From: Acidithiobacillus sp.
Lineage (GTDB): Bacteria > Pseudomonadota > Gammaproteobacteria > Acidithiobacillales > Acidithiobacillaceae
Reading direction: 5' to 3'
Length of the DNA stretch: 64,000 nt
NCBI RefSeq assembly: GCF_023256195.1
Contig: NZ_JAGDWX010000012.1
Span: 26,685 to 90,684, forward strand
The notes below the pieces were generated by a model. It saw only the letters and a program-made list of their open reading frames with translations, was not told the origin of the DNA and did no database searches. Position 1 is the first letter of the stretch. Each line of letters begins with the position of its first letter. Positions 38 through 42,232 of this stretch are shown one piece after another. The position numbers and the translations under genes were made by a program.

Positions 38-523
38 ATGAAATTGACGACCAAAGGCCGCTACGCGGTCACTGCGATGCTCGATCTGGCCCTGCACCAA
101 GAGAGTGGGGTGGTGACCGTCGCCGATATCTCGCAGAGACAGCAGATCTCGGTGGCCTATCTGGAGCAGCTTTTTGGTCGGCTGCGCCGGCGGGGGCTGG
201 TCGAGAGCGTGCGTGGCCCCGGTGGTGGTTATCGCCTTGCCGATCCTAGGGCAGAAATTCCCTTGACCCAGATCGTCGAGGCGGTCAACGAATCTATCCA
301 CACCACCCAGTGTGGCGGCGATCCGGTGCAGTGTTGCAAAGGCGAAGGCCAGCAGTGTCTGACCCACGATCTCTGGGAAGCTCTGGGGCAGCGGATAGCG
401 GATTTTCTGGGTGGCATCACCCTGGCTCAATTGGTGGAAGAGCAGCGGCGCAAGGAGCAACAAGTGGCCGCTCCGATGCGCCTGACGGCGCGTGTCCGAC
501 CCAGTGAGCCCCTACACGGTTGA
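38..523 (+). CDS. iscR: Rrf2-family Fe-S regulator IscR
   Basis: [20 protein letters not shown] start, Rrf2 wHTH, Cys cluster [19 protein letters not shown]; first gene of isc operon. Confidence 0.95.
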
Positions 524-536
524 GGAGAATGTGACG

Positions 537-1805
537 ATGAATCAGGTCAAGTCCCTGTCGGATTGGAAGATGCAGTCGCTGGAAAGCATCCAGCAGCAAC
601 GTCCCATCTATCTCGACTATCAATCGACCACGCCGGTGGACCCGCTGGTCCTCGAGCAGATGCTGCCCTACCTGACCCAGGAATTCGGCAATCCGGCGAG
701 CCGCTCGCACAGCTACGGCTGGACCGCCGAGGAGGCGGTGGAGCGGGCGCGGCAGCAGGTGGCCGATGCCATCCACGCCGACCCCAAGGAAATCGTCTGG
801 ACATCGGGCGCGACGGAGTCGACCAACCTGGCCCTGAAGGGTGCGGCCCATTTCTATTCCGGCAAGGGCAAGCACCTCATTACGCTGCGTACCGAACACA
901 AGGCGACTTTGGACACCTGCCGCCAGTTGGAGCGCGAGGGTTTCGAGGTGACCTATTTGGATGTGCAGGAGAATGGTCTGGTGGATCTCGACGCTTTCGT
1001 CGCAGCTCTGCGTCCAGACACCATTCTCGCCTCCGTGCTGTTCGTGAACAACGAGATCGGCGTCATTCAGCCCATGGAGGAGATCGGTCGCATCCTGCGG
1101 GAGCGGAAGATCCTCTTCCACGTCGATGCCGTCCAGGCCCTGGGCAAGGTGCCCGTGGACGTGGAGGCTATCCACGCCGATCTCATGAGCCTGTCAGGGC
1201 ACAAGATCTACGGTCCCAAGGGTATCGGCGCCCTCTACGTGCGGCGCAAACCGCGGGTGCGGGTAGAGGCGCAGATCCACGGTGGCGGTCACGAGCGCGG
1301 CATGCGCTCCGGCACCCTGCCGACGCATCAGATCGTCGGCATGGGGGCGGCAGCGGAACTGGCGGTGCAGTCCATGGAAAGCGACTCCCGCCGTATTCGG
1401 CAACTGCGCGACCGGCTTTGGCATGGTATCCAGGAGCGGGTGGAGGAGGTCTATGTCAACGGTGACATGGAGCACCGGGTACCACACAATCTCAATGTGA
1501 GCTTTGCCTTCGTGGAAGGCGAGTCGCTACTGATGGCTCTAAAGGGGATTGCGGTATCCAGTGGTTCTGCCTGCACCTCGGCGAGTCTCGAGCCCTCCTA
1601 CGTATTGCGGGCGCTGGGCAAGTCCGATGAGCTGGCCCACAGCTCCATACGCTTCGGCATCGGTCGCTACACCACCGAGGAAGAGATCGATACCACCATC
1701 GAACTCATTGCCGCCAAGGTGGGCAAGCTGCGTGAGCTCTCGCCACTATGGGAGATGCATCAGGAAGGTATCGACCTCAACAGTATTCAGTGGGCGGCGC
1801 ACTGA
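537..1805 (+). CDS. iscS: cysteine desulfurase IscS
   Basis: [53 protein letters not shown]; internal ATG at 537 preferred over ORF start 492. Confidence 0.96.
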
Positions 1806-1852
1806 GCTTTTTGCCCGTCGCAAGATCGGAATCGAGAAAGGAGTGAATTACC

Positions 1853-2278
1853 ATGGCCTACAGTGAAAAAGTCATCGATCATTATGAGAATCCGCGCAAT
1901 GTCGGGAGTTTCGACAAGGGCGATGAGTCCGTTGGCACCGGCATGGTGGGCGCGCCAGCCTGTGGTGACGTCATGCGTCTGCAGATCCGGGTGAACGAGC
2001 AGGGCATCATCGAGGACGCCCGCTTCAAGACCTACGGTTGCGGTTCTGCCATTGCCTCGTCGTCCTTGGTGACCGAGTGGGTGAAGGGCAAGACCCTGGA
2101 CGAGGCCATGACCATCAAGAACAGTCAGATCGCCGAGGAGCTGGAGCTCCCTCCCGTGAAGATCCACTGCTCGGTGCTGGCGGAGGATGCCATCAAGGCC
2201 GCGGTGCAGGACTACCTCCAGAAGCACGGGGGTGCTGCCGAAAATCACAGCGTCGCCGCTGAAGCCGCGAGTCACTGA
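1853..2278 (+). CDS. iscU: Fe-S scaffold protein IscU
   Basis: MAYSEKVIDHYENPRNVGSF, GAPACGDVMRLQI, KTYGCGSAIASSS, VKIHCSVLAEDAI. Confidence 0.97.
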   Translation: MAYSEKVIDHYENPRNVGSFDKGDESVGTGMVGAPACGDVMRLQIRVNEQGIIEDARFKTYGCGSAIASSSLVTEWVKGKTLDEAMTIKNSQIAEELELPPVKIHCSVLAEDAIKAAVQDYLQKHGGAAENHSVAAEAASH

Positions 2279-2287
2279 GGTAAGGCC

Positions 2288-2611
2288 ATGGCCATCGTCA
2301 TGACGGAACGGGCTGCCGATCAGGTGCGTCGCAGCCTCGCCAAACGCGGCAAGGGACAGGGTATCCGCATCGGGGTCAAGACCAGCGGTTGCTCGGGCCT
2401 TTCCTACGTGATGGAGTTCGTGGACGAGCCAAGGCCCGAGGATCGGGTGTTCAGCCACGAGGACGTACGACTCTTCGTGGATCCCAAAAGCCTGATCTAT
2501 CTGGACGGGACGGAGCTGGATTTCACCCGGGAGGGTCTGAATCAGGGCTTTCGCTTCAACAACCCCAATGTCAAGAACACCTGTGGTTGCGGCGAGAGTT
2601 TCACGACCTGA
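2288..2611 (+). CDS. iscA: A-type Fe-S carrier IscA
   Basis: [16 protein letters not shown] and C-terminal CGCGESF. Confidence 0.96.
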
Positions 2612-3234
2612 TGGCCGTGCTCCACTGTTCTCAGTGCGGGGCCGAGTACGCTCCCTGTAGCGTGCTTTGTCCCGCCTGCGGTGCCCTGCTGCCCTTTGAT
2701 CCCTCCTGCAGCCTCTTTGCCGTTCTAGGGCTCGGTGAATCCTACGACCTGGATGGGACGGACCTGCGCACGCGCGCCGTGGAGCTGCAGCGGCGGCTCC
2801 ATCCCGACCGTTTTGCCCAGGCTCCGGCATCCTTGCAGCGTCGCTCGCTGGAATGGAGCACGCGGATCAATGAAGCGGCGGCGGTGCTTGGGGATCCCTT
2901 GCGCCGCGCCGACTATCTGTTCGCGCGCCGCTACGGACGCTCAGCCCTTAGCGAAGCCCAGGGTAGCATTCGCGATCCGGAGCTCCTCATGCGGCAGATG
3001 GAGCTCCGGGAGCAGCTGGAAGCCATCAGCGAAGCGCGCGACCAGGCGGCCCTGGATGCCTTGCGCAGGCAGATCGCCGAAGATGAGCAGCGTTTGCAGC
3101 AGCAGGTGGCTCAAAATCTTGCGGTAGTCGAGGGTGGCAATGAGGCTCTGGCCGGCGCCCTGCAGGAGTGGCAGTATCTGCGCAAGTTGCGGGCCGAGCT
3201 GGATCGCAGTGAAGAGTCCTGGGATTTCGCCTAG
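2611..3234 (+). CDS. hscB: co-chaperone HscB with N-terminal tetracysteine motif
   Basis: J-domain HPD (RRLHPDRFA), C-terminal helical domain, position before hscA; ATG at 2611 within longer ORF. Confidence 0.92.
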   Translation: MAVLHCSQCGAEYAPCSVLCPACGALLPFDPSCSLFAVLGLGESYDLDGTDLRTRAVELQRRLHPDRFAQAPASLQRRSLEWSTRINEAAAVLGDPLRRADYLFARRYGRSALSEAQGSIRDPELLMRQMELREQLEAISEARDQAALDALRRQIAEDEQRLQQQVAQNLAVVEGGNEALAGALQEWQYLRKLRAELDRSEESWDFA

Positions 3235-3267
3235 GACGAGCCGGGCGTAAAGCACGAGGAGAGAACC

Positions 3268-5133
3268 ATGGCGTTGATGCAGATTGCCGAACCGGGCCAG
3301 AGTGGCGCTCCCCACGAGCGGCGTCTGGCCATCGGTATCGATCTCGGCACGACCCATTCCCTGGTGGCGACAGTGCGCTCGGCCATACCCGAGACCATTC
3401 CCGATGCCGAGGGGCGCGTGCTGCTGCCCTCGGTAGTGCACTACGCTGCCGATGGACGGGTGGCAGTGGGCTACGAGGCCCGCGCCGCCGCTGTTGAGGA
3501 TCCGCACAACACCATCGCTTCCGTGAAGCGCTTCATGGGGCGAGGAGCCGCCGATGTCGGCCGCCTTGCCGGGCACCTGCCCTTCGAGATCGTGCCTGGG
3601 GATGGCATGGTGCGGATCCGTACCGTCGCCGGCGACAAGAGTCCGGTGGAGGTCTCCGCCGAGATCCTCAAGGTTCTCAAGGAGCGGGCCGTGGCCGCCC
3701 TGGGTGAGGAGCCTCAGGGTGCGGTCATCACCGTGCCGGCCTATTTCGACGACGCGCAGCGGCAGGCCACCAAGGACGCCGCTGCCTTGGCCGGTCTGCC
3801 GGTGCTGCGTCTGCTGGCGGAACCCACGGCGGCAGCGGTGGCCTACGGCCTCGACAAGAACTCCCGCGGTCTCTATGCCGTTTTTGATCTGGGCGGCGGA
3901 ACCTTCGATTTCTCTCTGTTGCGTCTGCAGCAGGGGGTTTTCGAGGTACTGGCGACCGCGGGGGATGCCGCCCTGGGTGGCGACGATATGGACCACGCCA
4001 TAGCCGAGCACTTGCTGGCAGAGTTCCCCGACTACGCCGGGGATGCGGGTTTCCGGCGACAGAGCCTGCAGCTTGCGCGCGGCCTGAAGGAGCGTTTGAG
4101 CGAGGCGGATATGGCCAGTGCGCAGCTGGTGCTGCCCACCGGCGAGAGCCGCAGCTGGACGCTGCAGCGCCGCGATCTGGAGAATTGGATCCAGCCCATC
4201 CTGCAGAAAACCCTGACGCCCTGCCGGCGAGCCTTGCGCGATGCGGGGGTGGAGCGCTCTGCCATCGACGGCGTGGTACTGGTGGGGGGCGCGACCCGCG
4301 TGCCCTTGCTGCAGCGCATGGTGGCGGAATTCTTTGGCCGGGAACCCCTCACGGACATCGACCCCGATCGCGTGGTCGCACTGGGTGCGGCCATACAGGC
4401 CGATGCCCTGGTGGGCAATCAGCGCGAAGATCTTCTGCTCATGGACGTTCTGCCCTTGTCTTTGGGACTGGAAACCATGGGCGGGCTGGTGGAGAAGATC
4501 ATTCCCCGCAATACTCCCATCCCCGTGTCCCGTGCCCAGGAGTTCACCACCTTCAAGGATGGCCAGACGGCCATGTCCATCCACGTGTTGCAGGGCGAGC
4601 GGGACCGGGTGGAGGACAATCGCTCGCTGGCGCGTTTCACTCTGCGTGGCATTCCTCCCATGGTCGCGGGACAGGCGCGTATCCGCGTGACTTTCCAGGT
4701 GGATGCCGATGGCCTGCTGGCGGTCAGCGCCGAGGAAACCAGTACCGGGGTACGCGCCGAGGTACAAGTGAAACCCTCCTACGGTCTCGACGATGCGGCC
4801 ATCACCCAGATGCTCCAGGACGCGCTGCAGCATGCCGCCGACGACGTCGAGCATCGCCGCCTGGCTGAGGCCCGGGTGGAAGGTGAGCGGGCGCGCGAGG
4901 CCCTGGCAACGGCCATGGCCGCAGACGCAGCCTTGCTGTCGGAGTCGGAACGCCAAGCCATCGAGGCGGCTCGAGTCGATCTGGAGCGAGCTCTGGCGGG
5001 AACCGACGCCGACGCCATCACCGCGGCCACGGAGGCCCTGGAGAAGGCGGCCGAAGTGCTGGTGGAACGACGCATGAATCAGGCCGTGCGCAGCGCCATG
5101 GCCGGCCACTCCATCGACGAATGGAAGAACTGA
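3268..5133 (+). CDS. hscA: Hsp70-family chaperone HscA
   Basis: [37 protein letters not shown]; isc operon position. Confidence 0.96.
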
Positions 5134-5472
5134 ATGACCCACATCCGTGTCCTGCCTCACCACGAACTCTGTCCCGAAGGCGCCGAATTCGATGCCGAAC
5201 CCGGAGAGAGCATCATCGAAGCGGCGCTGCGCAACGGCGTGCACATCGAGCACGCCTGCGAGATGTCCTGTGCCTGTACCACCTGCCACGTGATCCTGCG
5301 GGAGGGTTTCGACAGTCTCGAACCCGCCGAGGAAAAGGAAGAGGATCTCCTGGACAAGGCCTGGGGCCTGGAGCCCACTTCCCGATTGAGCTGTCAGGCC
5401 AAGGTAGGCGACACCGATCTGGTCATCGAGGTTCCCAAGTACACCATCAATCTGGAAAAGGAGCGACACTGA
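5134..5472 (+). CDS. fdx: ISC-type 2Fe-2S ferredoxin
   Basis: CEMSCACTTCHVI cluster motif. Confidence 0.95.
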   Translation: MTHIRVLPHHELCPEGAEFDAEPGESIIEAALRNGVHIEHACEMSCACTTCHVILREGFDSLEPAEEKEEDLLDKAWGLEPTSRLSCQAKVGDTDLVIEVPKYTINLEKERH

Positions 5473-5666
5473 TGCGTTGGACGGACACGCAGGATATCGC
5501 CATCGCTCTGGATGAGGCCCACCCCGATGTGGACGTGGCGCGCATCCGCTTCACGGATCTCCATCGCTGGGTGACGGAACTGCCGGAGTTCGAGGACGAC
5601 CCCCAGCGCTCCAACGAGGGTATCCTGGAGGCCATTCAGATGGCCTGGCTCGCCGAAAGGGATTGA
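5472..5666 (+). CDS. iscX: IscX family protein
   Basis: MRWTDTQDIAIALDEAHPDVD...FEDDPQRSNEGILEAIQMAWLAERD. Confidence 0.94.
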   Translation: MRWTDTQDIAIALDEAHPDVDVARIRFTDLHRWVTELPEFEDDPQRSNEGILEAIQMAWLAERD

Positions 5667-5673
5667 GCCGGGC

Positions 5674-6720
5674 GTGGCGCGGATCGTCGTCGCCCTGTCG
5701 GGTGGGGTGGACTCGGCGGTGGCGGCAGCGCTTTTGGCCGAGGCGGGTCACGATCTGCTGGGTGTTACCCTCCGCCTCTGGCCGCAAAGTCGCTGCTGCG
5801 ATGAGCGGGATATCGAGGATGCGGCGGACCTGTGCGCACAGCTGGGCATCCCTTACCAGGTGCTGGACTACCGGCAGCGTTTTCGCGAGGCCATCGTCGA
5901 GCCCTTCGTTGCCGACTATCTGGCCGGGCGCACGCCCAATCCTTGTGCGCGCTGCAATCAACTCCTGAAATTCGACGCCCTGTGGCAGGAAGCGGCCGCT
6001 CTGGGTGCGGACTTCCTGGCGACGGGACATTACGTTCGTCTGCAGCAGCAGGGAGAGGACTGGCAGCTCTGGCGCGCCTTGGACCATCGCAAGGATCAAT
6101 CCTACTTCCTTTTTGCCCTGCCGGCGCAGCTTCTGCCCCGGCTGCGCTTCCCGCTGGGCGAGTGGCGCAAGGAAGAAGTGCGTGCTTGGGCGCAGCAGCG
6201 TGGTCTGAAGATTGCCGGAAAAGGGGACTCCCAGGATCTGTGTTTCATCCCGGGAGGCGATACCGGCGCCTTTGTCAAGGCACACGCCCCGGTAGCCGTT
6301 GAGGCTGGGGAGATCGTCGACGACACCGGGGCGGTGCTGGGGCGGCACGAGGGTCTGGTGCACTACACCGTCGGTCAACGTCGGGGTCTGGGTGGCGGAG
6401 CTGCAGAGCCGCGCTACGTCGTCGCCTTGGATAGCGCGCACAATCGCCTGCGGGTGGGCCCCGAGGCCGCCCTCTACCGAAACGAGACGGCGTTGCGGGA
6501 CTGCAACTGGTTGACAAGTCAGAGGGCTGGGCCCGACACTCCCGTTGCGGTCAAGTTGCGCTACGCGGCCGCTCCCGTTGCGGCGACGCTGCAGCCGCTG
6601 GAGGGAGCCGCGGCAAAGCTGCGCTTCGCGGCGCCGCAGCGGGCCATTACTCCCGGTCAGGCGGCGGTGTGCTACGATGGCGAGCGCCTGCTGGGGGGCG
6701 GCTGGATCGTTGACGGGTGA
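5674..6720 (+). CDS. mnmA: tRNA-specific 2-thiouridylase MnmA
   Basis: GTG start; SGGVDSAVAAALL, NPCARCNQLLKFD, GDSQDLCFIP, HYTVGQRRGLG. Confidence 0.95.
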   Translation: MARIVVALSGGVDSAVAAALLAEAGHDLLGVTLRLWPQSRCCDERDIEDAADLCAQLGIPYQVLDYRQRFREAIVEPFVADYLAGRTPNPCARCNQLLKFDALWQEAAALGADFLATGHYVRLQQQGEDWQLWRALDHRKDQSYFLFALPAQLLPRLRFPLGEWRKEEVRAWAQQRGLKIAGKGDSQDLCFIPGGDTGAFVKAHAPVAVEAGEIVDDTGAVLGRHEGLVHYTVGQRRGLGGGAAEPRYVVALDSAHNRLRVGPEAALYRNETALRDCNWLTSQRAGPDTPVAVKLRYAAAPVAATLQPLEGAAAKLRFAAPQRAITPGQAAVCYDGERLLGGGWIVDG

Positions 6721-6762
6721 GGCATGCGTTGGAATTGGGTTCTGAGGGAGGGGCGAGAACCA

Positions 6763-7506
6763 GTGTCCGATCTCGAGCAAGGCAAAACCGTCTACCGCAT
6801 CCTGGTGGTGGAGGATGAGGAAGGCATCCAGGAGCTCTTGCGTCTGAGCCTGCAGAAGCAGGGCTTCGAGGTGACCTGTGTGGCGAGTGTGGAGCAGGCC
6901 GAGGAACGCCTGCAGGATCCCATGCCGCATCTCGTCGTTCTGGACTGGATGCTCCCCGGCGAGAGCGGCGTGGCCTGGTGCCGCAGTCTGCGTCGCCAGG
7001 AGCGGACCCAGAGCCTGCCCATCATCGTCCTCACCGCCCGCGGGGAGGAAGGGGATCGAGTCCATGGCCTCGAGTCGGGCGCCGATGATTATCTGTCCAA
7101 GCCCTTTTCCCCGCGGGAGCTGGGCGCCCGGGTTCAGGCACTGCTGCGCCGCAGCTACGGCGGACTGACACCCAGCCACGTTCGCATCGGCGACCTGCTG
7201 GTGGATATCAAGGCGCATCGCGTCATGCTCGACGAAGCGCTGGTGTCCATGGGCCCAACGGAGTTTCGCATGCTGCGTCTCTTCGCCACCAATCCCGACC
7301 GCGTCTACTCGCGCGAGGCGCTGCTGGATCACATCTGGGGACGGCAAAGCTTCATCGAGGAGCGTACGGTGGACGTCCACATTCGCCGTCTGCGTCGCGC
7401 CTTGGCCAAGGTGGGCTATGCCAACATCATCGAGACGGTGCGCGGTGAGGGTTACCGCTGCAACCCTCTGGCCCCCCGCGGGGTCATGGTGGAGGAGGAT
7501 GCGTGA
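6763..7506 (+). CDS. phoB: phosphate regulon response regulator PhoB
   Basis: Receiver domain plus OmpR-type DNA-binding domain (GPTEFRMLRLFATNPDRVYSREALLDHIWG); GTG 6763 follows GGGAGGGG. Confidence 0.93.
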   Translation: MSDLEQGKTVYRILVVEDEEGIQELLRLSLQKQGFEVTCVASVEQAEERLQDPMPHLVVLDWMLPGESGVAWCRSLRRQERTQSLPIIVLTARGEEGDRVHGLESGADDYLSKPFSPRELGARVQALLRRSYGGLTPSHVRIGDLLVDIKAHRVMLDEALVSMGPTEFRMLRLFATNPDRVYSREALLDHIWGRQSFIEERTVDVHIRRLRRALAKVGYANIIETVRGEGYRCNPLAPRGVMVEEDA

Positions 7507-8858
7507 GTTTTCTGCGGGCCTGGTTCCCGCTGCTGCTGCCCCTGGGTCTCGCCCTGCTGTGGTGGTGGGGCCAGGTCCCGCTGCACCAGATCGCCGCCTT
7601 TCTCTGGGTGTCCGCCTTCGTCGCGGCACTGTGGGTGGGCTGGCACCGGCAGCAGGCCCTGCGCTTTCGCGCTTGGTTCCGGGAAAAGCGCACCAGCATG
7701 CCGCCCTTGAGTGCGGGGATCTGGGAGGAGACCTTTGCTGAGGGCTATCACTGGCGTCGGCATCAGGAAATCACCCAGCGCCAGTTGAGTGCCCAGATCG
7801 TGCAGCTGCGCGACGCCCTGCAGGCCATGCCCGACGCCGTCATCCTGATGGACGAGGATGGTCGTCTGCTCTGGGTGAATCCGGCGGCGGTACAGCTCCT
7901 CGGTCTGCACTGGCCCGACGATCTCGGCAAACCCTTTGCCTACTGGCTGCGGCTGCCGCAGATGCGTCAGTTTCTGGGGGGTGAGGGCAGCACAGCCATC
8001 CAGATGCCCATGCCCCGGGATCCGGAGCGGGTGGTGGAGGGGCTACGCTATCCCCTGGGCGATGCCGGGGCCTTGGTACTCTTTCGCGACATCACCCGCC
8101 TGCGCCAGCTGGAGCAGGTGCGCCAGGATTTCGTCGCCAACGTCTCCCACGAGTTGCGCAGCCCCCTGACCGTCATTCGCGGCTTTCTCGAGAATCTGCT
8201 GGACGGTCCGCTGGGCCGGGATGCCGAAGTCGGTCCGCAGTTGCGGCTGATGGAGACCCAGAGCCAGAGGATGCAGTCTCTGGTGGAGGATCTCCTGTCC
8301 CTGGCCCGCATGGAATCGACGGAGCCCGATCCGCAGCGCCTCCAGGAACTCTTTCCCGCGGAGCTCTTGCGGCGCAGCCTGAGCAGCCTCGCCCCCCAGA
8401 TTCAAGAAAAGGCCCTGCAGCTGCAGCTGGAGGTGGACGAGGAGCTCGCCATCCTCGCCGAACCGCTGGATATCCAGAGCATCGTCCACAATCTCGTGGA
8501 CAACGCCGTGAAATACTCTCCCGCAGGTCGTGCCATCCGCGTGTTCTGGCTCGAGCTGGCTACGGAGCTGCTGTTTGCGGTGGAAGATCAGGGCGATGGT
8601 ATCGCGCCCGAGCATCTGCGTCGCATCACCGAGCGCTTCTATCGCGTCGATCGCGGTCGCTCCCGGCGTGTCGGCGGTACGGGCCTGGGCCTTGCCATCG
8701 TCCGCCATGCGGTGGAGCGTTACCACGGACGCCTGGAGATCGATAGCGAGCCTGGACATGGCTCGGTCTTCCGCGTCCATTTTCCCCAGGCCTTGGGTCG
8801 TCGCCGTAAGCTGCAGAGAGACCCCGAGGCGCAGGCCGCTGTCATCAAAGTGTCATAA
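7503..8858 (+). CDS. phoR: phosphate regulon sensor kinase PhoR
   Basis: PAS region, H-box VANVSHELRSPLTVIRGFLE, N/G boxes; overlaps phoB end. Confidence 0.93.
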   Translation: MSFLRAWFPLLLPLGLALLWWWGQVPLHQIAAFLWVSAFVAALWVGWHRQQALRFRAWFREKRTSMPPLSAGIWEETFAEGYHWRRHQEITQRQLSAQIVQLRDALQAMPDAVILMDEDGRLLWVNPAAVQLLGLHWPDDLGKPFAYWLRLPQMRQFLGGEGSTAIQMPMPRDPERVVEGLRYPLGDAGALVLFRDITRLRQLEQVRQDFVANVSHELRSPLTVIRGFLENLLDGPLGRDAEVGPQLRLMETQSQRMQSLVEDLLSLARMESTEPDPQRLQELFPAELLRRSLSSLAPQIQEKALQLQLEVDEELAILAEPLDIQSIVHNLVDNAVKYSPAGRAIRVFWLELATELLFAVEDQGDGIAPEHLRRITERFYRVDRGRSRRVGGTGLGLAIVRHAVERYHGRLEIDSEPGHGSVFRVHFPQALGRRRKLQRDPEAQAAVIKVS

Positions 8859-8872
8859 AATACCGTTATACT
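8839..8872 (+). promoter_or_regulatory. PHO box plus -10 (PhoB-dependent promoter)
   Basis: CTGTCAT-CAAA-GTGTCAT (8839-8856), 10 bp, TATACT (8867-8872); upstream of pstB. Confidence 0.8.
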
Positions 8873-8891
8873 CGGGAAGATTTTTACTCGG

Positions 8892-9671
8892 ATGGGGGAC
8901 AACATGGCGGAGCAAGGCAAGCCCAAGATCAAGGTAAGCCACCTGGATTTTTTCTATGGTAACAATAAGGCGCTGAAAGATATCAACATCGAGCTTCCCG
9001 AAAAGCAGGTGACGGCCTTCATCGGTCCCTCCGGTTGCGGCAAGTCGACCCTGCTGCGGGTATTCAACCGCATGTACTCCCTCTATCCGGGCCAACGGGC
9101 AACGGGGCAGGTGCTGCTGGACGGCGAGGACATCCTCAGTCCCAGCATCGACGTCAACCTGCTTCGGGCCAAGGTGGGGATGGTCTTCCAGAAGCCGACG
9201 CCTTTTCCCATGTCCATCTACGATAACATTGCCTTCGGCATCCGCCTCTACGAGAAGCTGCGCAAGGTGGAGATGGACGAGCGTGTCGAGCAGGCCCTGC
9301 GGCAGGCAGCCCTCTGGGATGAGGTCAAGGACAAGCTCAAGGCCAGTGGTCTGAGTCTCTCGGGCGGCCAGCAGCAGCGCCTCTGCATCGCCCGGGCGGT
9401 GGCCGTCAAGCCCGAGGTCATCCTTCTGGATGAGCCCACATCGGCCCTGGATCCCATCGCGACCCTGAAGATCGAGGAACTGGTCAGCGAGCTGCGCGAT
9501 CGTTTCACCATCCTTATCGTCACGCACAACATGCAGCAGGCGGCCCGCGTGTCCAACTTCACTGCCTTCATGTACCTGGGGGAGATGGTGGAGTTTGGCC
9601 CGACCCAGCAGCTCTTCACCAACCCGCAACAGAAACAGACGGAAGATTACATCACCGGTCGCTACGGCTAA
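8892..9671 (+). CDS. pstB: phosphate ABC transporter ATPase PstB
   Basis: Walker [36 protein letters not shown]. Confidence 0.94.
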
Positions 9672-9682
9672 GGAGTACGGTC

Positions 9683-10402
9683 ATGGACAAAGAACCCCAC
9701 ATCTCGCAGCGTTTCGACGAAGAACTTCAGGGTGTACACGAACTGGTCCTGACCATGGCAGGCGTCGTCGAGGATCAGTTCGCCAATGCCATGCTGGCTT
9801 TGCAGCACCAGGATAGTGAGTTGGCCAATGAGATCATTTCTCGGGACGCCGTGGTCAATGGCTATGAGGTCCGCATCGAGGAAGAGTGCATCGGTATTCT
9901 GGCGCGACGGCAGCCGGCGGCCGGCGATCTGCGTCTGGTGATGACCCTCATCAAGACCATCGCCGACCTGGAGCGCATCGGCGACAAGGCTGCCAAGATC
10001 GCCAACATGGTGCTGTCCATGGGGCACGGTTCCCAAGGGATCCACAGCAATTTTCTGCGGGACGTCCACGGCATGGGCGAGTATGCCCTGCGCATGCTGC
10101 GCGAGGCCATGGATGCACTGGCTCGGGCCGATGCCGATGCGGCCATCCGCATCGCCCGTGGTGACGAGGAACTCAATCAGGAGTACCGCGCGGCGACGCG
10201 GCGCCTGGTGACCTACATGATGGAGGATCCACGTACCATCACCGCCGCCATCGACGCTCTGTTCATCGCCAAGGCCGTGGAGCGCGTCGGTGATCATGCC
10301 CGCAACGTCTGCGAGTACGTGATCTACCTTGCCAAGGGGCGCAATGTCCGCCATATTCCCTTGGAACAGGTTGCCAAAGACCTCCAGAAAGGAGCTTCAT
10401 GA
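9683..10402 (+). CDS. phoU: phosphate signalling protein PhoU
   Basis: HISQRFDEELQGVHELVLTMAGVVE; conserved PhoU helices (IGDKAAKIANM, VGDHARNVCEYVIY). Confidence 0.94.
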   Translation: MDKEPHISQRFDEELQGVHELVLTMAGVVEDQFANAMLALQHQDSELANEIISRDAVVNGYEVRIEEECIGILARRQPAAGDLRLVMTLIKTIADLERIGDKAAKIANMVLSMGHGSQGIHSNFLRDVHGMGEYALRMLREAMDALARADADAAIRIARGDEELNQEYRAATRRLVTYMMEDPRTITAAIDALFIAKAVERVGDHARNVCEYVIYLAKGRNVRHIPLEQVAKDLQKGAS

Positions 10403-11907
10403 CCCTGCCGTCCTCAAGTCCCGAGCCTGCGCTGCTCGCCGCCGTCGATCTCGGCTCCAATTCTTTTCACATGGTGGTGGCGCAGGAGTGGGGGACGGAG
10501 CTGCGGCTATTGGACCGCTTGCGGGAGGGAGTGCGTCTGGCGGAGGGCCTGGGTGAGGATGGCAGCCTCGATCCCAAGGTGGCGAGCCGTGCCCTGGAGT
10601 GTCTGGCGCGCTTTGCTCAGCGCCTGCAAGGGGTGCCGCCGGAGCGGGTACGGGTCATCGGTACCAACACCCTGCGTCTGGCTACTCGCGCCGAGGACTT
10701 CGTTGCCGCCATTCAGAAAACCCTGGGTTTTCCTGTGGAGATCGTGGCGGGGCGGGAAGAGGCACGGCTCATCTACCTGGGTGTGGCCCACAGCCTGGCG
10801 GTGGATGCTGGTGAGCGGCGGCTGGTCATCGACATCGGCGGCGGCAGTACCGAGGTGATCGCTGGTACCGGGTTTCAGCCCTGGATCACCGAAAGCCTGA
10901 GTTACGGCTGCGTGGGCTCGACCCGAAAGTTCTTCGCCGATGGTCGGATCACCGAGGCCGCCATGGCAGCGCTGCAGAATCGGGTGCGCCTCGCCATCGA
11001 GCCGAGTCTGGGCGATTATTTTCGCCACGGCTGGGATCAGGCCATAGGATCCTCCGGCACCATCAAGGCGGTCCTGCGGATTCTTGGCGAGAACGGGCTG
11101 GGCAGCCGCATCACCCCAACGGGTTTGGAATGGCTGCGTGAGCAGGTACTGCAGCTGGGGCAGATCTCGGCCCTGCATAAACTGCGGGGTCTGAAGGCGG
11201 AGCGGGCGGCGGTCTTCCCGGGCGGTCTGGCCATCCTGTTGGCTCTGTTCGCCTCACTGCGCATACAGGAAATGCGCTTTTCCGAAGGCGCGCTGCGGGA
11301 AGGCGCGATCTATGATCTCCTCGGTCGCATCCATCACGAGGATAGTCGCGAGCTCAGTATTGCCAATCTGCAGCAGCGTTTTCACAGTCAGGTGCAGCGC
11401 AATGCCGAGGTGACGGAGTGGGCGGTGCGGCTGTTTGCTGCGGCGCGCCACGTTTGGGGCCTGCACGATGGTCATCTGGCCTGGCTGCGCTGGGCGGCCG
11501 CCACCCACGACATCGGTCTGGATATTGCGCACTCGGGCTTCCACAAGCACGGCGAGTATATCTGGCGCAACGCCGATATCGCGGGCTTTTCGCGGCGCGA
11601 GCAGAACCTCATCGCCTGTCTGGTGCGCTGCCAGCGGAAAAAGCTCCTGAGTCTCTCGCAGTTGCAGGCGTTTGGAGTGGCGGCGGAGGATGCCGAGCCC
11701 TTGCAGCAGCTGGCCGTGCTGCTGCGCCTGGCCATCGTCCTGCAGCGGGGCGCCGCCGGCCTTGCGCACACGCCGACCCTGACCATCCGTGGGCGGACGC
11801 TGGAGCTGCGCTTCCCGGCGGACTGGCGCGCCGTCGCCCCTCTGCTGGCCGCCGATCTGGAGCAGGAGCAGGGTCTGGTAGGCCCCGATTTTCAAGTGCT
11901 CTTCTAA
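10399..11907 (+). CDS. ppx: exopolyphosphatase Ppx/GppA
   Basis: AAVDLGSNSFHMVV, IDIGGGSTEVI, HD-like C-terminal domain. Confidence 0.93.
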   Translation: MTLPSSSPEPALLAAVDLGSNSFHMVVAQEWGTELRLLDRLREGVRLAEGLGEDGSLDPKVASRALECLARFAQRLQGVPPERVRVIGTNTLRLATRAEDFVAAIQKTLGFPVEIVAGREEARLIYLGVAHSLAVDAGERRLVIDIGGGSTEVIAGTGFQPWITESLSYGCVGSTRKFFADGRITEAAMAALQNRVRLAIEPSLGDYFRHGWDQAIGSSGTIKAVLRILGENGLGSRITPTGLEWLREQVLQLGQISALHKLRGLKAERAAVFPGGLAILLALFASLRIQEMRFSEGALREGAIYDLLGRIHHEDSRELSIANLQQRFHSQVQRNAEVTEWAVRLFAAARHVWGLHDGHLAWLRWAAATHDIGLDIAHSGFHKHGEYIWRNADIAGFSRREQNLIACLVRCQRKKLLSLSQLQAFGVAAEDAEPLQQLAVLLRLAIVLQRGAAGLAHTPTLTIRGRTLELRFPADWRAVAPLLAADLEQEQGLVGPDFQVLF

Positions 11908-35871: not shown

Positions 35872-37413
35872 TCAGCGGTCTGAGGTCTGCGATGTCTCGC
35901 CGATGATTTCGAGGATCTCGGCAAAGCGCTGCGGGTCTGCCACTGTCCGCGGTATCTTGTTTTGTCCGCCGAGCCTCCCTGCCCGACGCAGCCACCGAGC
36001 GAAGCTGCCCGGTGGCAAGAGAAGGACACGAGGAGCCAGCAGCTGCAGGCCACGGTGCTCCTGATAGTCGGCGTTGCGCGCCTGCAGCTCGCGGTCGATG
36101 GCATGGGCCATGGCTTCCTCACGGGTCTGTCGCTGTGTCGGTGACGCATCCGCGATGGTGGACTCCACGAGAAAAAGGTGACGGCCGCGACCCGGTGCGG
36201 CCGGGTCCAACCGCGCCCCCACCATCCACTCGACGATGGGATGACCGTCCTCGGTGGCGGCCCGGGCGATGGCGGCCCGCAGTTCTTCTGGGTGCAGGTG
36301 TTCGCCAAAGACCGACAGATAATCTTGTAGGCGTCCCACCACGGCGATGCGTGGCGGTCTACGGCTGAGAATGCGTACGGTATCGCCGATGCGGTAGGAC
36401 CAGAGACCAGCAGCGGTACTGAGTATCAGCGCATAGTCCTCATCCAGGACGCAGTCTTTGAGCCAGTGGCGCTGCGGACGTTCCTCCCCGAGCTCGCGTA
36501 CGGGGACGAATTCGTAGAAGGCGCCGTGCTCGAGATGCAGGCGCAGGCCGGCTTCGGGCTTGTCGTCGGCACTGGCGATGAAGGCTTCGCTGGCGGCATA
36601 GACTTCGCGCAGTTCGGCGCGGGTATCCCGGAGGTAGGGGGCGAAGAGCGGGCGATAGGGTGCAAAGGGCACACCGCCGTGCAGCAGCAGCTCCAGCCGC
36701 GGATAGGGGGGTGGGGTGCCCCGGAGGGCGCTCACGGCCTCCAGCAGCAGGAGCAGCCAGCTCGGCGTACCACTGAGCTGGCGAATGTCGTAGCGGAGGC
36801 TGTCCTTGGCCAGAACCCGCAGTTTTTCATCCCAGTCTGCCAGCAGTGCAAGACGCTTGGGTGGATAGACCCAGGGCCGGGACCACCAGGGCATAGTCTC
36901 AGCGGCGATACCGCTTAGATCGCCCGCTTTTACCCCAGGCGCCAGGGATTGCAGGTCGGTACTGCCGCCCAGCAGAAAGGATCGGCCAGCCAAGGGCCGG
37001 GCCCAGGGGCAGGCCTGCTGGTGCCAGACCAGGGTATCCAGGGCGGCGCGCCGCTGGGCCCGGAGCATGGCGCGGCTCAAGGGTAAGTACTTGCTGCGCC
37101 CACTGCTCGTGCCCGAGCTCAGGGCAAACCAGGGAATGGGATCGGGCCAGGTCTGGTTCCGGATCCGCGGGAATGCAGCTTGCCAGTATTGCCGCCAGAA
37201 GCTCTCATAGTCGCGCAATGGCACCCGCTGCTGAAAATCGCGCACCGTTCCGATGCGCGCAAAGTCGTGCTCCTGGCCGAAACGGCTGGCGCGCGCGTGG
37301 CGTATGAGACCTTGCAGCAACTGCCGCTGGCATTGCACGGGATCCATGGCGTCCAAATATCGGGCCCGGCGCCCGGCATAGTGGCGAAAGCCGGCATCCA
37401 GCGCCTCACTCAC
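35872..37413 (-). CDS. GH3 family acyl-adenylate/acyl-amido synthetase
   Basis: FALSSGTSSGRSKYLPLS (ANL-type P-loop), REVYAASEAFIASADDKP, YRIGDTVRI; GTG start overlaps upstream stop (GTGA). Confidence 0.82.
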   Translation of the reverse strand: MSEALDAGFRHYAGRRARYLDAMDPVQCQRQLLQGLIRHARASRFGQEHDFARIGTVRDFQQRVPLRDYESFWRQYWQAAFPRIRNQTWPDPIPWFALSSGTSSGRSKYLPLSRAMLRAQRRAALDTLVWHQQACPWARPLAGRSFLLGGSTDLQSLAPGVKAGDLSGIAAETMPWWSRPWVYPPKRLALLADWDEKLRVLAKDSLRYDIRQLSGTPSWLLLLLEAVSALRGTPPPYPRLELLLHGGVPFAPYRPLFAPYLRDTRAELREVYAASEAFIASADDKPEAGLRLHLEHGAFYEFVPVRELGEERPQRHWLKDCVLDEDYALILSTAAGLWSYRIGDTVRILSRRPPRIAVVGRLQDYLSVFGEHLHPEELRAAIARAATEDGHPIVEWMVGARLDPAAPGRGRHLFLVESTIADASPTQRQTREEAMAHAIDRELQARNADYQEHRGLQLLAPRVLLLPPGSFARWLRRAGRLGGQNKIPRTVADPQRFAEILEIIGETSQTSDR

Positions 37414-39623
37414 GGGCCTCTCAGCTCCAGGCGATGGCGGCAGCGGCGCAAAACGGCCTCGCGACTCAGCGGCAGGGGAATGTAACGACCCTCGCGCCAG
37501 TGTGGGATCTGATCGTCGAACTGCGCACTGTCCAGCCAGCCATCCTGACCGCCTAGAAGTACGCAATAATTGTCGTCCACGTCCTCGACACGGCAGAGGA
37601 AGCGGGCCTGGGCACCGAAACTGGCACGGTGTGGACCGCGTACCAGTCCGTGTGCCACCTTCATGGGCGTTTCGCGGGAGCCGGCGCTGGCCCACTGATG
37701 GCTCGGCAAGAGCCGACCAAGCAGCGGAAAAGCAGCCAGCCAATGGGCGCTGCGCAGGCGATGCAGATCGCCCCAGCGGGGATAGCGGCGCCAACGCCGC
37801 CAGGCCAAGGCCGCTGCACGCCCAAGGAGTCGGCGTCGCAACTCGATATCCAGAGCATCGAGATCTGCGGGGAGGAACTGGCAGATGCTCCCCCAATCCG
37901 TCGTCCCTCGCCAAAAGGGCTGGACGCGCCCCATGCCTTTGACGGTGGCGGCGAGAAGCAGTTCGAAAGCGGCGGCGCCCTGACTGTCCACCGTATAATC
38001 CCCGGACCAACTCTTCAGTGCAGAGCGCAGCGCCGCCGACGCCGGTGCATCGTCCAGCCGCTTCGCCAGGAATCTGGCGAGGCTCCGAGCCCTTGCGGAG
38101 TGGACATCCCCTTGCCAGGCCATGAGCTGCGCAGCTGTAACGGGCCCGCGGCGTTCCCGAAGCAACTGGCGAAGACGCTCGACCCGATCGGGGGGGCTGA
38201 AGAACAGGCCGATGAAATCCGAGCCGGCCGGCCGGTCGTTGGCCGAGACCACCAGGCCCTCCACCGCGGGACTACCGGGGACGGTGGAGTAGAAGGCATC
38301 TTGCGTCTGTGGTACACCTGCCGGGTTAGGGCAGTCCTGGCTCCCTGCGGTCCAGCGCATCTTCGGGTCTCGCGGATCGCGCAGAATATCCGGATAGTCG
38401 CTGCGACGCCGCGGCAGGGTCGCCGCAAAGATGTGCTCCACGCGACCGCGACGGTCCGCCGCCAGGAAATTGAGGCCGGGAACGGACCAGCATGGGAAAA
38501 TTCGCCGCAGGGCACCGGCTTCTGTGGCGCGCATCAGATCCAGCAGCGGCGTGAACTCGTCGCTGGGACGATGTCCCATCCAGGCCAGTGCAAGCTTTTC
38601 TGGACCCTTGGGCCAGAGGCGGGCGTCGCTGATCACGGGGCCGACCGCCGTCCAGCGCCGCCAGATGGTTTTGGGGGGCAGGAAGCGCCGACGCAGCTGG
38701 ATGCGTTCGCGCCGACAGATGTCCTTATCGTCCACGGCGAAGAGGTCGCTGCTGAGAGAGCGCAGGTTGGTCCCACCCCAGGCCAGATCTGCATTGCGTC
38801 CGATGCTGACGAAGGGGAGGCCGACGGGAGCGAGACCCACGGCATCCAGCCCCGGCGCGTGCAGTCCGAGGAGCAGCCAGGTGTTGGGCAGGGCAAAACC
38901 CAGGTGCGGATCGCTGGCAAGCCAGGTGCCGCCGCCCTCGCCCTCGGCGATGGCAAAGGCATTGCTGCCACTGCGCGCGACGCCGAAGAAAGCCGCCAAT
39001 TGGGTACTGACCGCGGCACCCGCAGCCCCCTGGCCCTGTCCAGCTTGGAGCAGACGCTGCCAGCGGTCGGCCCAGCCGGGCTGCCGGCGCAGCCGCAGAA
39101 AGCGCGCATAGAGCAGCCAGTGCACGTCGGCGGCGATGACCCGGCTCATCCGAACGATATCCAAGGGTTCCCAGGAGCGGCGTTGCAGTCCGAGCCAGCG
39201 GAACTCCGGCGGGCATCGCTGCTGCGCCGCGCCATAGGCATTGAGCCCAAGGACAAAGGCCTCCAGCCAGTCGCGGGTACGCTGGGGCAACAGGGCGAGG
39301 ATTTCCGGGGCCGCTCTGCCGGGGTCAAGGCGGCGGATCAAATCGTCGACGGGCGTGAGCAGCGGGCCCAGGAGCTCGCCCATGCGCCCCTCAGCCAGGT
39401 AGCGCAAAAGGTAAAGCTGGGTCTCGCGTAGATGGCACTGTACCAGGCCAAGGCCAAGGGCTAGATCGTGGTCGTTCTCCGCGTAGATCTGCGGGATCTG
39501 GTGTTCGTCCCACAAGATCTCGACCCCAGCCTCAAGAGGCAATCCATGGCGCGGAAACGACTGCAGTCTACTGGCCAGGGACTGCCTTCGCCGATTCTGC
39601 AAGGATGCGTGTCGCCTAAGCAT
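37410..39623 (-). CDS. penicillin acylase family (Ntn-hydrolase) protein
   Basis: GSNAFAIAEGEGGGTWLASDPHLGFALPNTWLLLGLHAPGLDAVG, IGRNADLAWGGTNL. Confidence 0.88.
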   Translation of the reverse strand: MLRRHASLQNRRRQSLASRLQSFPRHGLPLEAGVEILWDEHQIPQIYAENDHDLALGLGLVQCHLRETQLYLLRYLAEGRMGELLGPLLTPVDDLIRRLDPGRAAPEILALLPQRTRDWLEAFVLGLNAYGAAQQRCPPEFRWLGLQRRSWEPLDIVRMSRVIAADVHWLLYARFLRLRRQPGWADRWQRLLQAGQGQGAAGAAVSTQLAAFFGVARSGSNAFAIAEGEGGGTWLASDPHLGFALPNTWLLLGLHAPGLDAVGLAPVGLPFVSIGRNADLAWGGTNLRSLSSDLFAVDDKDICRRERIQLRRRFLPPKTIWRRWTAVGPVISDARLWPKGPEKLALAWMGHRPSDEFTPLLDLMRATEAGALRRIFPCWSVPGLNFLAADRRGRVEHIFAATLPRRRSDYPDILRDPRDPKMRWTAGSQDCPNPAGVPQTQDAFYSTVPGSPAVEGLVVSANDRPAGSDFIGLFFSPPDRVERLRQLLRERRGPVTAAQLMAWQGDVHSARARSLARFLAKRLDDAPASAALRSALKSWSGDYTVDSQGAAAFELLLAATVKGMGRVQPFWRGTTDWGSICQFLPADLDALDIELRRRLLGRAAALAWRRWRRYPRWGDLHRLRSAHWLAAFPLLGRLLPSHQWASAGSRETPMKVAHGLVRGPHRASFGAQARFLCRVEDVDDNYCVLLGGQDGWLDSAQFDDQIPHWREGRYIPLPLSREAVLRRCRHRLELRGP

Positions 39624-39903
39624 CGGGGCTCCTGCGCCGGAGGGTCTCGCGCCCACCTAGTTCATGGTAGTCGCCACGGTGCCTGCGGACAAGGACGGAC
39701 GTCCCGACGGGGGCGATGCACGCCGAGCTTCAGCCCTAGATAAATCTGCGGATTATTGGAACATTATAAAAAATGGGCGGAATTATTGAGAGCGCCGTGA
39801 GTATGCTTGGCTCCCCGATTTTGACGGAACCATTGCTCTACCAAGAGGTCAAAGCGAACACAGGAGAACTCCTGCGTATCAAGATCCAATAGAGGAGGCG
39901 GTA

Positions 39904-40587
39904 ATGAATAAATTACTTGCAGCTGGTGTTTCGGCAAGTGTTGCTTTATTGGTTTACGGTACCGCGTGGGCTACGCCCCTGTCCCAGACATTGAACAGTG
40001 TAGGAGTGTACGGCAACGTCACCGGGGCGACCAATGATGGCGGCAACACCACCGGCGGTATTGGGGTTCGCGCTTCTATATATCGGGATAATTTCCTTTT
40101 TTCAGCAAATTATCGCCACGATTTCGGAGCAGCTTTCCAGAATCCCACGGGTGGGGATACCAATGCGGTGAATGTCAAGGGCGCGTATCTGATTCCCTTG
40201 TCGGAAAATTTTGCCGTCGGCCCCTATCTGTCGTATCAGTATACCCGTTTCACCCTGAACGACGCGAACTCCGGTGCCTTTCATTACAGCAATAATGCCA
40301 TTGGCGGCGGCGGCTACGCGGCCTTCAGCCAGGGGCCGCTGACCTTGACTGGCAACGTGGGCTACCTCTCCGGCGTGTCTGCCACCTACAGCTACACCAA
40401 CGGCGGCTATCGCCAGGCCTTTACCAGCGCGCATGGCTCCGCTAACGTGCTACAGCTCGGTGTGCAGGCAGATTATCAAGTATCCGGACCCTGGTACGCC
40501 TTCACCGGCTTCAAATGGGATCGCTATATGCACCACGGCGACTTCAATCTGCTGCAGGGTAATGTGGGGCTCGGTTACAGCTTCTGA
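39904..40587 (+). CDS. YfaZ-like outer-membrane protein
   Basis: Signal peptide (to ATPLSQTLNS), alternating beta-strand pattern, C-terminal GLGYSF. Confidence 0.7.
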   Translation: MNKLLAAGVSASVALLVYGTAWATPLSQTLNSVGVYGNVTGATNDGGNTTGGIGVRASIYRDNFLFSANYRHDFGAAFQNPTGGDTNAVNVKGAYLIPLSENFAVGPYLSYQYTRFTLNDANSGAFHYSNNAIGGGGYAAFSQGPLTLTGNVGYLSGVSATYSYTNGGYRQAFTSAHGSANVLQLGVQADYQVSGPWYAFTGFKWDRYMHHGDFNLLQGNVGLGYSF

Positions 40588-41805: not shown

Positions 41806-42072
41806 TCAGCTCTTCTTGCTGACGACGTGCTTGGCCATCGGCTTGTGCACGACCTTCTTGGCGGCCATCTTGTGCATGGGAGCCTTGTGCATCGGGGCCT
41901 TGTGCGCCACCTTCTTCTTCATCGGAGCCTTGTGCACGGGAGCCTTGTGCATCTCGGACTTGACAGGAGCCTTGGCGGTCTCCTTGGCAGGGGCGGTGGT
42001 GGCAGCGAAGGCGGAAGAAACCGCAAAGACCGAAATCAGGGCAACCACCACAGCGGAAGTTTTGACGGACAT
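41806..42072 (-). CDS. small exported Lys/His/Met/Pro-rich repeat protein
   Basis: MSVKTSAVVVALISVFAVSSAFA signal peptide then HKAPVHKAPMKKKVAHKAPMHKAPMHKM; SD AGGAG. Confidence 0.8.
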   Translation of the reverse strand: MSVKTSAVVVALISVFAVSSAFAATTAPAKETAKAPVKSEMHKAPVHKAPMKKKVAHKAPMHKAPMHKMAAKKVVHKPMAKHVVSKKS

Positions 42073-42232
42073 GGTATATCTCCTCATAGAAAAAGTGGTA
42101 CAGCACCTTACTCTAAGCAAACGCCATGCCAATTATATAACTATCGGATTATTATGGGATATCGTGAATGATCCGGGAGCCTGTGTGGGAGGCTTCTGTC
42201 GTGGCGCGGCGACGTTGGCGCTGCGGATGGGC

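What the first reader, a model, noticed from the sequence alone, without database searches (positions are those of the whole stretch)
35872..39623. Translationally coupled amide-maker/amide-breaker pair: penicillin-acylase-family hydrolase + GH3-type ligase
The acylase stop and the GH3 GTG start share GTGA, so both proteins come from one message. GH3 enzymes adenylate carboxylic acids and join them to amines or amino acids; penicillin-acylase-family Ntn hydrolases cut N-acyl bonds, including acyl-homoserine lactones. Together they could form, remodel or recycle one N-acyl compound such as an N-acyl amino acid or AHL-type signal. The acylase has no obvious signal peptide, whereas characterised relatives are largely periplasmic, so both may act in the cytoplasm. 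The substrate is unknown.
Basis: partly seen in the sequence, partly recalled or inferred. Interest (0 to 1): 0.72.

Follow-up and report, generated by a model that had tools for sequence, protein, structure and literature searches.

The report
Paired amide-making and amide-breaking enzymes
Two overlapping genes, one for an enzyme that joins an acid to an amine and one for an enzyme of a kind that cuts such bonds, have stayed side by side in distantly related bacteria, and the joining enzyme is a close relative of one that makes the first half of ornithine membrane lipids, so the pair is probably a small module that builds and unbuilds an N-acyl amino acid lipid.

Summary
A 737-aa penicillin-acylase-family (PF01804) gene at 37410-39623(-) overlaps a 513-aa GH3 gene at 35872-37413(-) by GTGA. 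All catalytic and nucleotide-binding motifs are intact. The adjacency is not strain-specific. I found the same acylase-GH3 order, usually overlapping or within 30 bp, in 26 genomes of Acidithiobacillus, a further gammaproteobacterial family, several alphaproteobacterial families and Desulfofustis. In an even Pseudomonadota sample all 4 strong GH3 homologues had the acylase next to them. The two trees agree (Mantel r 0.86).

The GH3 protein matches OlsH, the ATP-dependent N-acyl-ornithine synthetase described in 2025, over its full length (483 bits; paired relatives up to 610; family cut-off 620). It is thus a near relative, not a certified OlsH. OlsH's known partner, the alpha/beta-hydrolase OlsI, is replaced here by the acylase.

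Nine paired acylases are predicted lipoproteins. The Acidithiobacillus copies have lost the lipobox, so a cytoplasmic acylase is a lineage-specific state.

The quorum-signal reading is weak: no LuxI in this genome. An OlsBA-like operon is present, so the pair is not needed for ordinary ornithine lipid. Substrate and reaction direction remain unproven.

The parts
37410..39623 (-). Penicillin-acylase-family Ntn hydrolase (S45/PF01804), 737 aa, no signal peptide; first gene of the pair
35872..37413 (-). GH3-family ATP-dependent acyl-amido synthetase, OlsH-like, 513 aa, GTG start; second gene of the pair
37410..37413 (-). GTGA overlap of GH3 start and acylase stop (translational coupling)
39629..39633 (-). 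AGGAG ribosome-binding site, 5 nt before the acylase ATG
38964..38966 (-). Ser220 codon, predicted N-terminal nucleophile (beta-chain residue 1) after autoprocessing; residues 197-219 before it are the low-confidence spacer of the model
   Evidence: invariant in 27 homologues; model pLDDT <50 at 197-219
38904..38906 (-). His240 codon (matches PvdQ His beta23)
   Evidence: invariant in 27 homologues; PvdQ residues from PMC5474475
38238..38240 (-). Asn462 codon, predicted oxyanion-hole Asn
   Evidence: invariant in 27 homologues
37090..37119 (-). GH3 nucleotide motif I, SSGTSSGRSK (residues 99-108)
   Evidence: motif as described for OlsH in PMC12493201
36586..36606 (-). GH3 nucleotide motif II, EVYAASE (residues 270-276)
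36382..36408 (-). GH3 nucleotide motif III, GLWSYRIGD (residues 336-344)

Best explanation
The pair is a conserved two-enzyme N-acyl amine module. The GH3 protein activates a free fatty (possibly 3-hydroxy) acid with ATP and joins it to an amino acid, most likely ornithine or another common amino acid, as its relative OlsH does. The acylase is its dedicated partner on the same product class: it forms an acyl-enzyme on Ser220 and removes the N-acyl group, so that the N-acyl amino acid or amino-lipid is turned over or remodelled and the free acid can be re-used by GH3. In many species the acylase is a periplasm-facing lipoprotein, so making and breaking are on opposite sides of the membrane; in Acidithiobacillus the export signal is lost and both enzymes are expected in the cytoplasm. 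Shown here: gene order, coupling, catalytic motifs, folds, OlsH relationship, co-inheritance and signal loss. Inferred: the substrate, that both enzymes share it, and hydrolysis as the acylase's main reaction.
For: GH3 matches the OlsH model over residues 3-506 with 483 bits; acylase-paired relatives score 526-610 (cut-off 620), above Rhodobacterales GH3s without an acylase (455-461) and Geobacter ones (361-364). OlsH makes N-acyl-ornithine from free fatty acid, ATP and ornithine (PMC12493201). Motifs conserved in 43 GH3s and 27 acylases. Acylase adjacent in 26 genomes and next to 4 of 4 strong GH3s in a 399-genome phylum sample. The GH3-linked acylases are a discrete subfamily: 748-989 bits, next best 361; 4 of the 5 such genes lie beside GH3. 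Trees agree, Mantel r 0.86 (permutation maximum 0.37), 14 of 24 splits shared. Both genes decayed together in G765. GH3 partner type follows GH3 clade. Models resemble plant GH3 synthetases (TM up to 0.77) and D-succinylase, a hydrolase acting on D-amino acid derivatives (TM 0.76). Lipobox in nine paired acylases, Cys->Phe in the A. ferrooxidans group.
Against: No substrate was tested. GH3 falls below the OlsH cut-off and the window copy is the lowest-scoring acylase-paired one scanned. An OlsBA-like pair lies in the same genome, so N-acyl-ornithine may already be supplied. Two opposed enzymes in one compartment would waste ATP unless regulated or acting on different molecules. One sampled member of the acylase subfamily (G409) has no GH3 at all.
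Confidence: 0.42

Rival explanations
1. The acylase is the second-step acyltransferase: it takes the place of OlsI and transfers an acyl chain through its Ser220 acyl-enzyme onto the hydroxyl of the N-(3-hydroxyacyl) amino acid made by GH3, giving a full acyloxyacyl amino-lipid.
For: OlsI is also a hydrolase-fold protein that became an O-acyltransferase and sits in one operon with OlsH. Geobacter GH3s have an alpha/beta-hydrolase-like gene in the same upstream position that the acylase holds here.
Against: Penicillin-acylase-family enzymes are known as amide hydrolases. In nine species the acylase is a predicted lipoprotein, away from acyl-CoA and acyl-ACP. The host already has an OlsA-like O-acyltransferase beside OlsB.
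Confidence: 0.2
2. Relay: the acylase hydrolyses a different N-acyl compound (for example an imported or endogenous N-acyl amino acid or AHL) to give free acid, which GH3, an enzyme that needs free acid, ligates to a new amine.
For: OlsH needed added free fatty acid and was silent in living E. coli, which the authors explain by lack of free fatty acid (PMC12493201). A periplasmic acylase in part of the family suits an imported substrate.
Against: No LuxI in this genome, in G001 or in G003; no transport gene conserved beside the pair.
Confidence: 0.15
3. Acyl tag for export or maturation, as with PvdQ: GH3 N-acylates a molecule in the cytoplasm, and the acylase removes the acyl group after transfer.
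For: Opposite membrane sides of the two enzymes in the lipoprotein clades.
Against: No conserved biosynthetic or export genes with the pair; the acylase is not exported in Acidithiobacillus, so the logic would fail there; PvdQ model score only 23 bits.
Confidence: 0.1
4. The two enzymes act on unrelated substrates and are linked only by shared expression.
For: No substrate known; a subfamily acylase without GH3 exists (G409), and close GH3s without acylase exist (L050, L063).
Against: Order and tight spacing kept across Pseudomonadota and Desulfofustis, congruent trees, joint decay.
Confidence: 0.13

Closest known systems
OlsH (Sinac_1599) of Singulisphaera acidiphila, GH3-type lyso-ornithine lipid synthetase (NCBIfam NF052613; PMC12493201)
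   Same: Same family over the whole length, the three nucleotide-binding motifs, similar length, an operon partner that handles acyl groups.
   Different: Score below the equivalog cut-off; partner is an Ntn acylase instead of alpha/beta-hydrolase OlsI; no OlsG gene beside it; host also has OlsBA-like genes.
D-succinylase of Cupriavidus sp. P4-10-C (PDB 7EBY, 7EA4) and cephalosporin/penicillin acylases of the S45 family
   Same: Fold, spacer plus Ser beta1 architecture, His and Asn of the active site.
   Different: About 24% identity; no signal peptide in the window copy; genetically tied to an amide synthetase.
AHL acylases PvdQ and MacQ
   Same: Same superfamily and catalytic residues (Ser beta1, His beta23, oxyanion Asn).
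   Different: PvdQ model hit only 23 bits against a 950-bit cut-off; no LuxI synthase in this genome; no signal peptide.
Plant GH3 amido synthetases (JAR1/GH3.11, GH3.15)
   Same: Fold and reaction type (adenylate, then amide with an amino acid).
   Different: About 18% identity in structure alignment; bacterial, shorter.

Membership tests
GH3 amido synthetase family | GH3 N-terminal, middle and C-terminal domains and three nucleotide-binding motifs | tested here: met
   PF03321, PF23571, PF23572 above cut-offs; motifs intact; fold matches plant GH3
OlsH lyso-ornithine lipid synthetase (NF052613) | Score at or above the curated equivalog cut-off of 620 bits | tested here: not met
   482.7 bits for the window protein, up to 610.5 for paired relatives
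OlsH lyso-ornithine lipid synthetase (NF052613) | ATP-dependent ligation of fatty acid to ornithine | not testable with these tools
   needs an enzyme assay
OlsH-OlsI pathway | OlsI-type alpha/beta-hydrolase in the operon | tested here: not met
   the neighbour is a PF01804 acylase and nothing else is co-directional and contiguous
S45 penicillin-acylase Ntn hydrolases (PF01804) | Whole-length PF01804 match, spacer and N-terminal Ser nucleophile, active-site His and Asn | tested here: met
   4e-126; Ser220/His240/Asn462 invariant; fold
S45 penicillin-acylase Ntn hydrolases (PF01804) | Signal peptide and periplasmic maturation | tested here: not met
   no hydrophobic or cleavable N-terminus in the window copy, while nine paired homologues have a lipobox; by inspection and hydropathy, no dedicated predictor
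S45 penicillin-acylase Ntn hydrolases (PF01804) | Autocatalytic cleavage before the Ser | not testable with these tools
   needs purified protein
AHL acylase (PvdQ type) | Match to the PvdQ equivalog model | tested here: not met
   23.2 bits, cut-off 950
AHL acylase (PvdQ type) | Hydrolysis of AHLs | not testable with these tools
   needs an assay; LuxI absent from this genome

The most novel reading that the evidence does not exclude
A penicillin-acylase-type Ntn hydrolase works as a lipid acyltransferase or transacylase in a further amino-lipid pathway beside OlsBA, OlsF and OlsH-OlsI, with an OlsH-type ligase making the N-acyl amino acid. In acidophiles this acylase has moved from the periplasmic membrane face into the cytoplasm.
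Probability: 0.18. Interest if true: 0.75.

Novelty: new variant of a known kind. Interest (0 to 1): 0.5.

Why it matters
Bacterial GH3 enzymes are numerous (the OlsH paper reports over 7500 BLAST hits) but only OlsH appears characterised in the papers found here. A conserved, translationally coupled acylase partner gives a genetic handle on what this branch makes and how it is undone. It would also be an amide-making and amide-breaking pair kept together over large phylogenetic distances, with an apparent change of compartment in Acidithiobacillus; ornithine-containing lipids of Thiobacillus thiooxidans were reported in papers cited by PMC4484230. I found no paper describing the pair; only open-access PMC text was searched.

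Tried and rejected
1) AHL signalling: rejected as lead because LuxI (PF00765) is absent from G000, G001 and G003 and present only in G018; other AHL synthase types were not tested. 2) Pair as the missing ornithine-lipid pathway of Acidithiobacillus: rejected, since an OlsB-type gene is in nearly all genomes of the family and in this genome it overlaps an OlsA-like gene. 3) Link between the pair and OlsB: 7 of 7 pair genomes tested have PF13444, but so do 55% of the phylum sample, so it is not informative. 4) Part of an aryl-polyene-like cluster: only in the A. ferrooxidans-type locus, about 0.6 kb away; not conserved. 5) First genome-contig scan with the single protein gave no loci; viral contigs gave none. 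6) Alignment reasoning about an invariant Asp166 in the acyl pocket was dropped: no coordinates were available to check it. 8) I could not fetch the S. acidiphila OlsH or OlsI sequence, so comparison rests on the NCBIfam model, and whether the Geobacter hydrolase is OlsI is open.

Full report
What is there. The window lies in a 1.98-Mb, 37-contig genome (G000:C28). G001 and G018 are called caldus-like and ferrooxidans-like here from my recollection of their chromosome lengths, which the tools did not confirm. On the minus strand a 737-aa acylase gene (39623-37410) is followed by a 513-aa GH3 gene (37413-35872). Stop and start share GTGA. AGGAG lies 5 nt before the acylase ATG. The unit converges on an FMN oxidoreductase gene and diverges from a gene at 39904, so it is a two-gene operon by position.

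Integrity. The acylase covers PF01804 end to end. Its model (mean pLDDT 82) is closest to D-succinylase 7EBY, then cephalosporin acylases, MacQ, penicillin G acylases and PvdQ. Residues 197-219 have low confidence, as expected of an inter-chain spacer before Ser220. Ser220, His240 and Asn462 are invariant in 27 homologues; PvdQ uses Ser beta1, His beta23, Val beta70 and Asn beta269 (PMC5474475). The GH3 model (pLDDT 91) matches plant GH3 amido synthetases, and its three nucleotide motifs are intact.

Which GH3. The only NCBIfam hit is OlsH, NF052613, at 482.7 bits over residues 3-506, under the 620 cut-off. Acylase-paired relatives score 526-610, GH3s of Rhodobacterales without the acylase 455-461, and Geobacter GH3s 361-364. 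OlsH makes N-acyl-ornithine from free fatty acid, ATP and ornithine, and its operon partner OlsI adds the second chain (PMC12493201). The authors expect other amino acids for relatives outside the planctomycetes, so ornithine is likely but not certain here.

Conservation of the pair. A profile scan of named genomes gave 36 loci. In 20 the acylase is directly upstream of GH3 with a gap of -8 to +29 bp, and in one it is 2.5 kb upstream. With the window, G001, G018, Indioceanicola profundi, G508 and G681 this makes 26 adjacent pairs, from Acidithiobacillus, another gammaproteobacterial lineage, Acetobacteraceae, Defluviicoccus, Azospirillaceae, Acuticoccus, Siccirubricoccus and Desulfofustis. Nine of the 23 junctions measured have the same 4-base overlap. 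In an even sample of 399 genomes of the phylum, all four strong GH3s are paired. The GH3-linked acylases form a discrete subfamily: five hits at 748-989 bits, next 361; four of the five are beside GH3, and G409 has no GH3. No third gene is conserved in distant taxa. Trees of the two proteins agree (Mantel r 0.86 against a permutation maximum of 0.37; 14 of 24 splits), although shared descent of the hosts contributes. On both trees the Acidithiobacillus and G033 sequences group next to Acetobacteraceae-type sequences, which suggests joint horizontal transfer.

Losses. Within the family only 5 of 29 genomes have an intact GH3. G765 holds remnants of both genes, mostly 85-90% identical in pieces to the G018 copy, at the corresponding locus. 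The pair is dispensable and was lost as a unit there.

Where the acylase works. Nine paired acylases start with a lipoprotein-type signal and lipobox, for example LLALLAMLPGC|AALFP. The A. ferrooxidans group keeps the segment as LPGFAALFP, with the cysteine gone and the core broken; in the window and in G001 it has vanished. Loss of export in Acidithiobacillus is the simplest reading. It fits an acidic periplasm, but that cause is my inference, and lipobox loss also occurs in other species. These calls are by inspection and hydropathy, not by a trained predictor.

Mechanism. Shown: two intact enzymes of opposite chemistry, coupled and co-inherited. Inferred from OlsH: an N-acyl amino acid product. 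Inferred from position and family: the acylase acts on that product. I favour hydrolysis (turnover or remodelling, 0.42) over acyl transfer in place of OlsI (0.20), relay of free acid (0.15), export tag (0.10) and unrelated substrates (0.13). The transfer idea has a precedent in OlsI, and Geobacter GH3s have an alpha/beta-hydrolase-like gene in the same upstream place. Against it stand the OlsBA-like operon of this genome and the lipoprotein forms.

Verdict. Real, conserved, and undescribed in the literature I could search (only open-access PMC text). It is a new variant of a known kind: an OlsH-like ligase with a new type of partner. Interest 0.5, since the chemistry is unproven but directly testable.

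Noticed in passing
L122 (G765:C1:1962001-1977000), about 7467-8550: Decayed remnants of both acylase and GH3, mostly 85-90% identical in pieces to the G018 copy, at the same locus beside the aryl-polyene-like genes; short GH3 C-terminal scraps also in G771 (L123) and a second one in G018 (L124).
   Followed up: partly
L028 (G018) 206-8484: Run of minus-strand genes about 0.6 kb beyond the pair: membrane protein, AMP-ligase, LpxL-like acyltransferase, flexirubin-type LolA2-like protein, MMPL-like exporter, ketosynthase; looks like an aryl-polyene or flexirubin-type cluster.
   Followed up: partly
L069 7878-12536 (Seohaeicola) and L068 (Ruegeria sediminis): GH3 without acylase beside a GNAT-like gene, an SDR and a serine-palmitoyltransferase/BioF-like PLP enzyme: possibly a sphingolipid-like or other amino-lipid cluster.
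   Followed up: partly
L074, L075, L077, L078, L082 (Geobacter and kin), gene upstream of GH3: About 360-400-aa protein with only weak Abhydrolase_6 similarity in the position of the acylase; could be an OlsI counterpart.
   Followed up: partly
L121 (G409:C10), 8543-10651: A member of the GH3-linked acylase subfamily in a genome with no GH3 hit; what it acts on there is open.
   Followed up: partly
L103 (G000:C37) 7737-9421: OlsB-like and OlsA-like genes overlapping in the window's own genome; both fall below the NCBIfam equivalog cut-offs.
   Followed up: yes
L031 (G258) 8549-11186: GH3 (37% identical) with a GNAT/FemAB-like neighbour inside a menaquinone gene cluster, no acylase.
   Followed up: partly
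window 39904-40587 (+): 227-aa outer-membrane-like protein with a signal sequence and no Pfam or NCBIfam match, divergent from the pair and present at the same place in G001 (L027 13010-13690).
   Followed up: partly
window 41806-42132 (-): 108-aa secreted-looking protein with repeated HKAPMHKAP-type lysine/histidine/proline segments.
   Followed up: no
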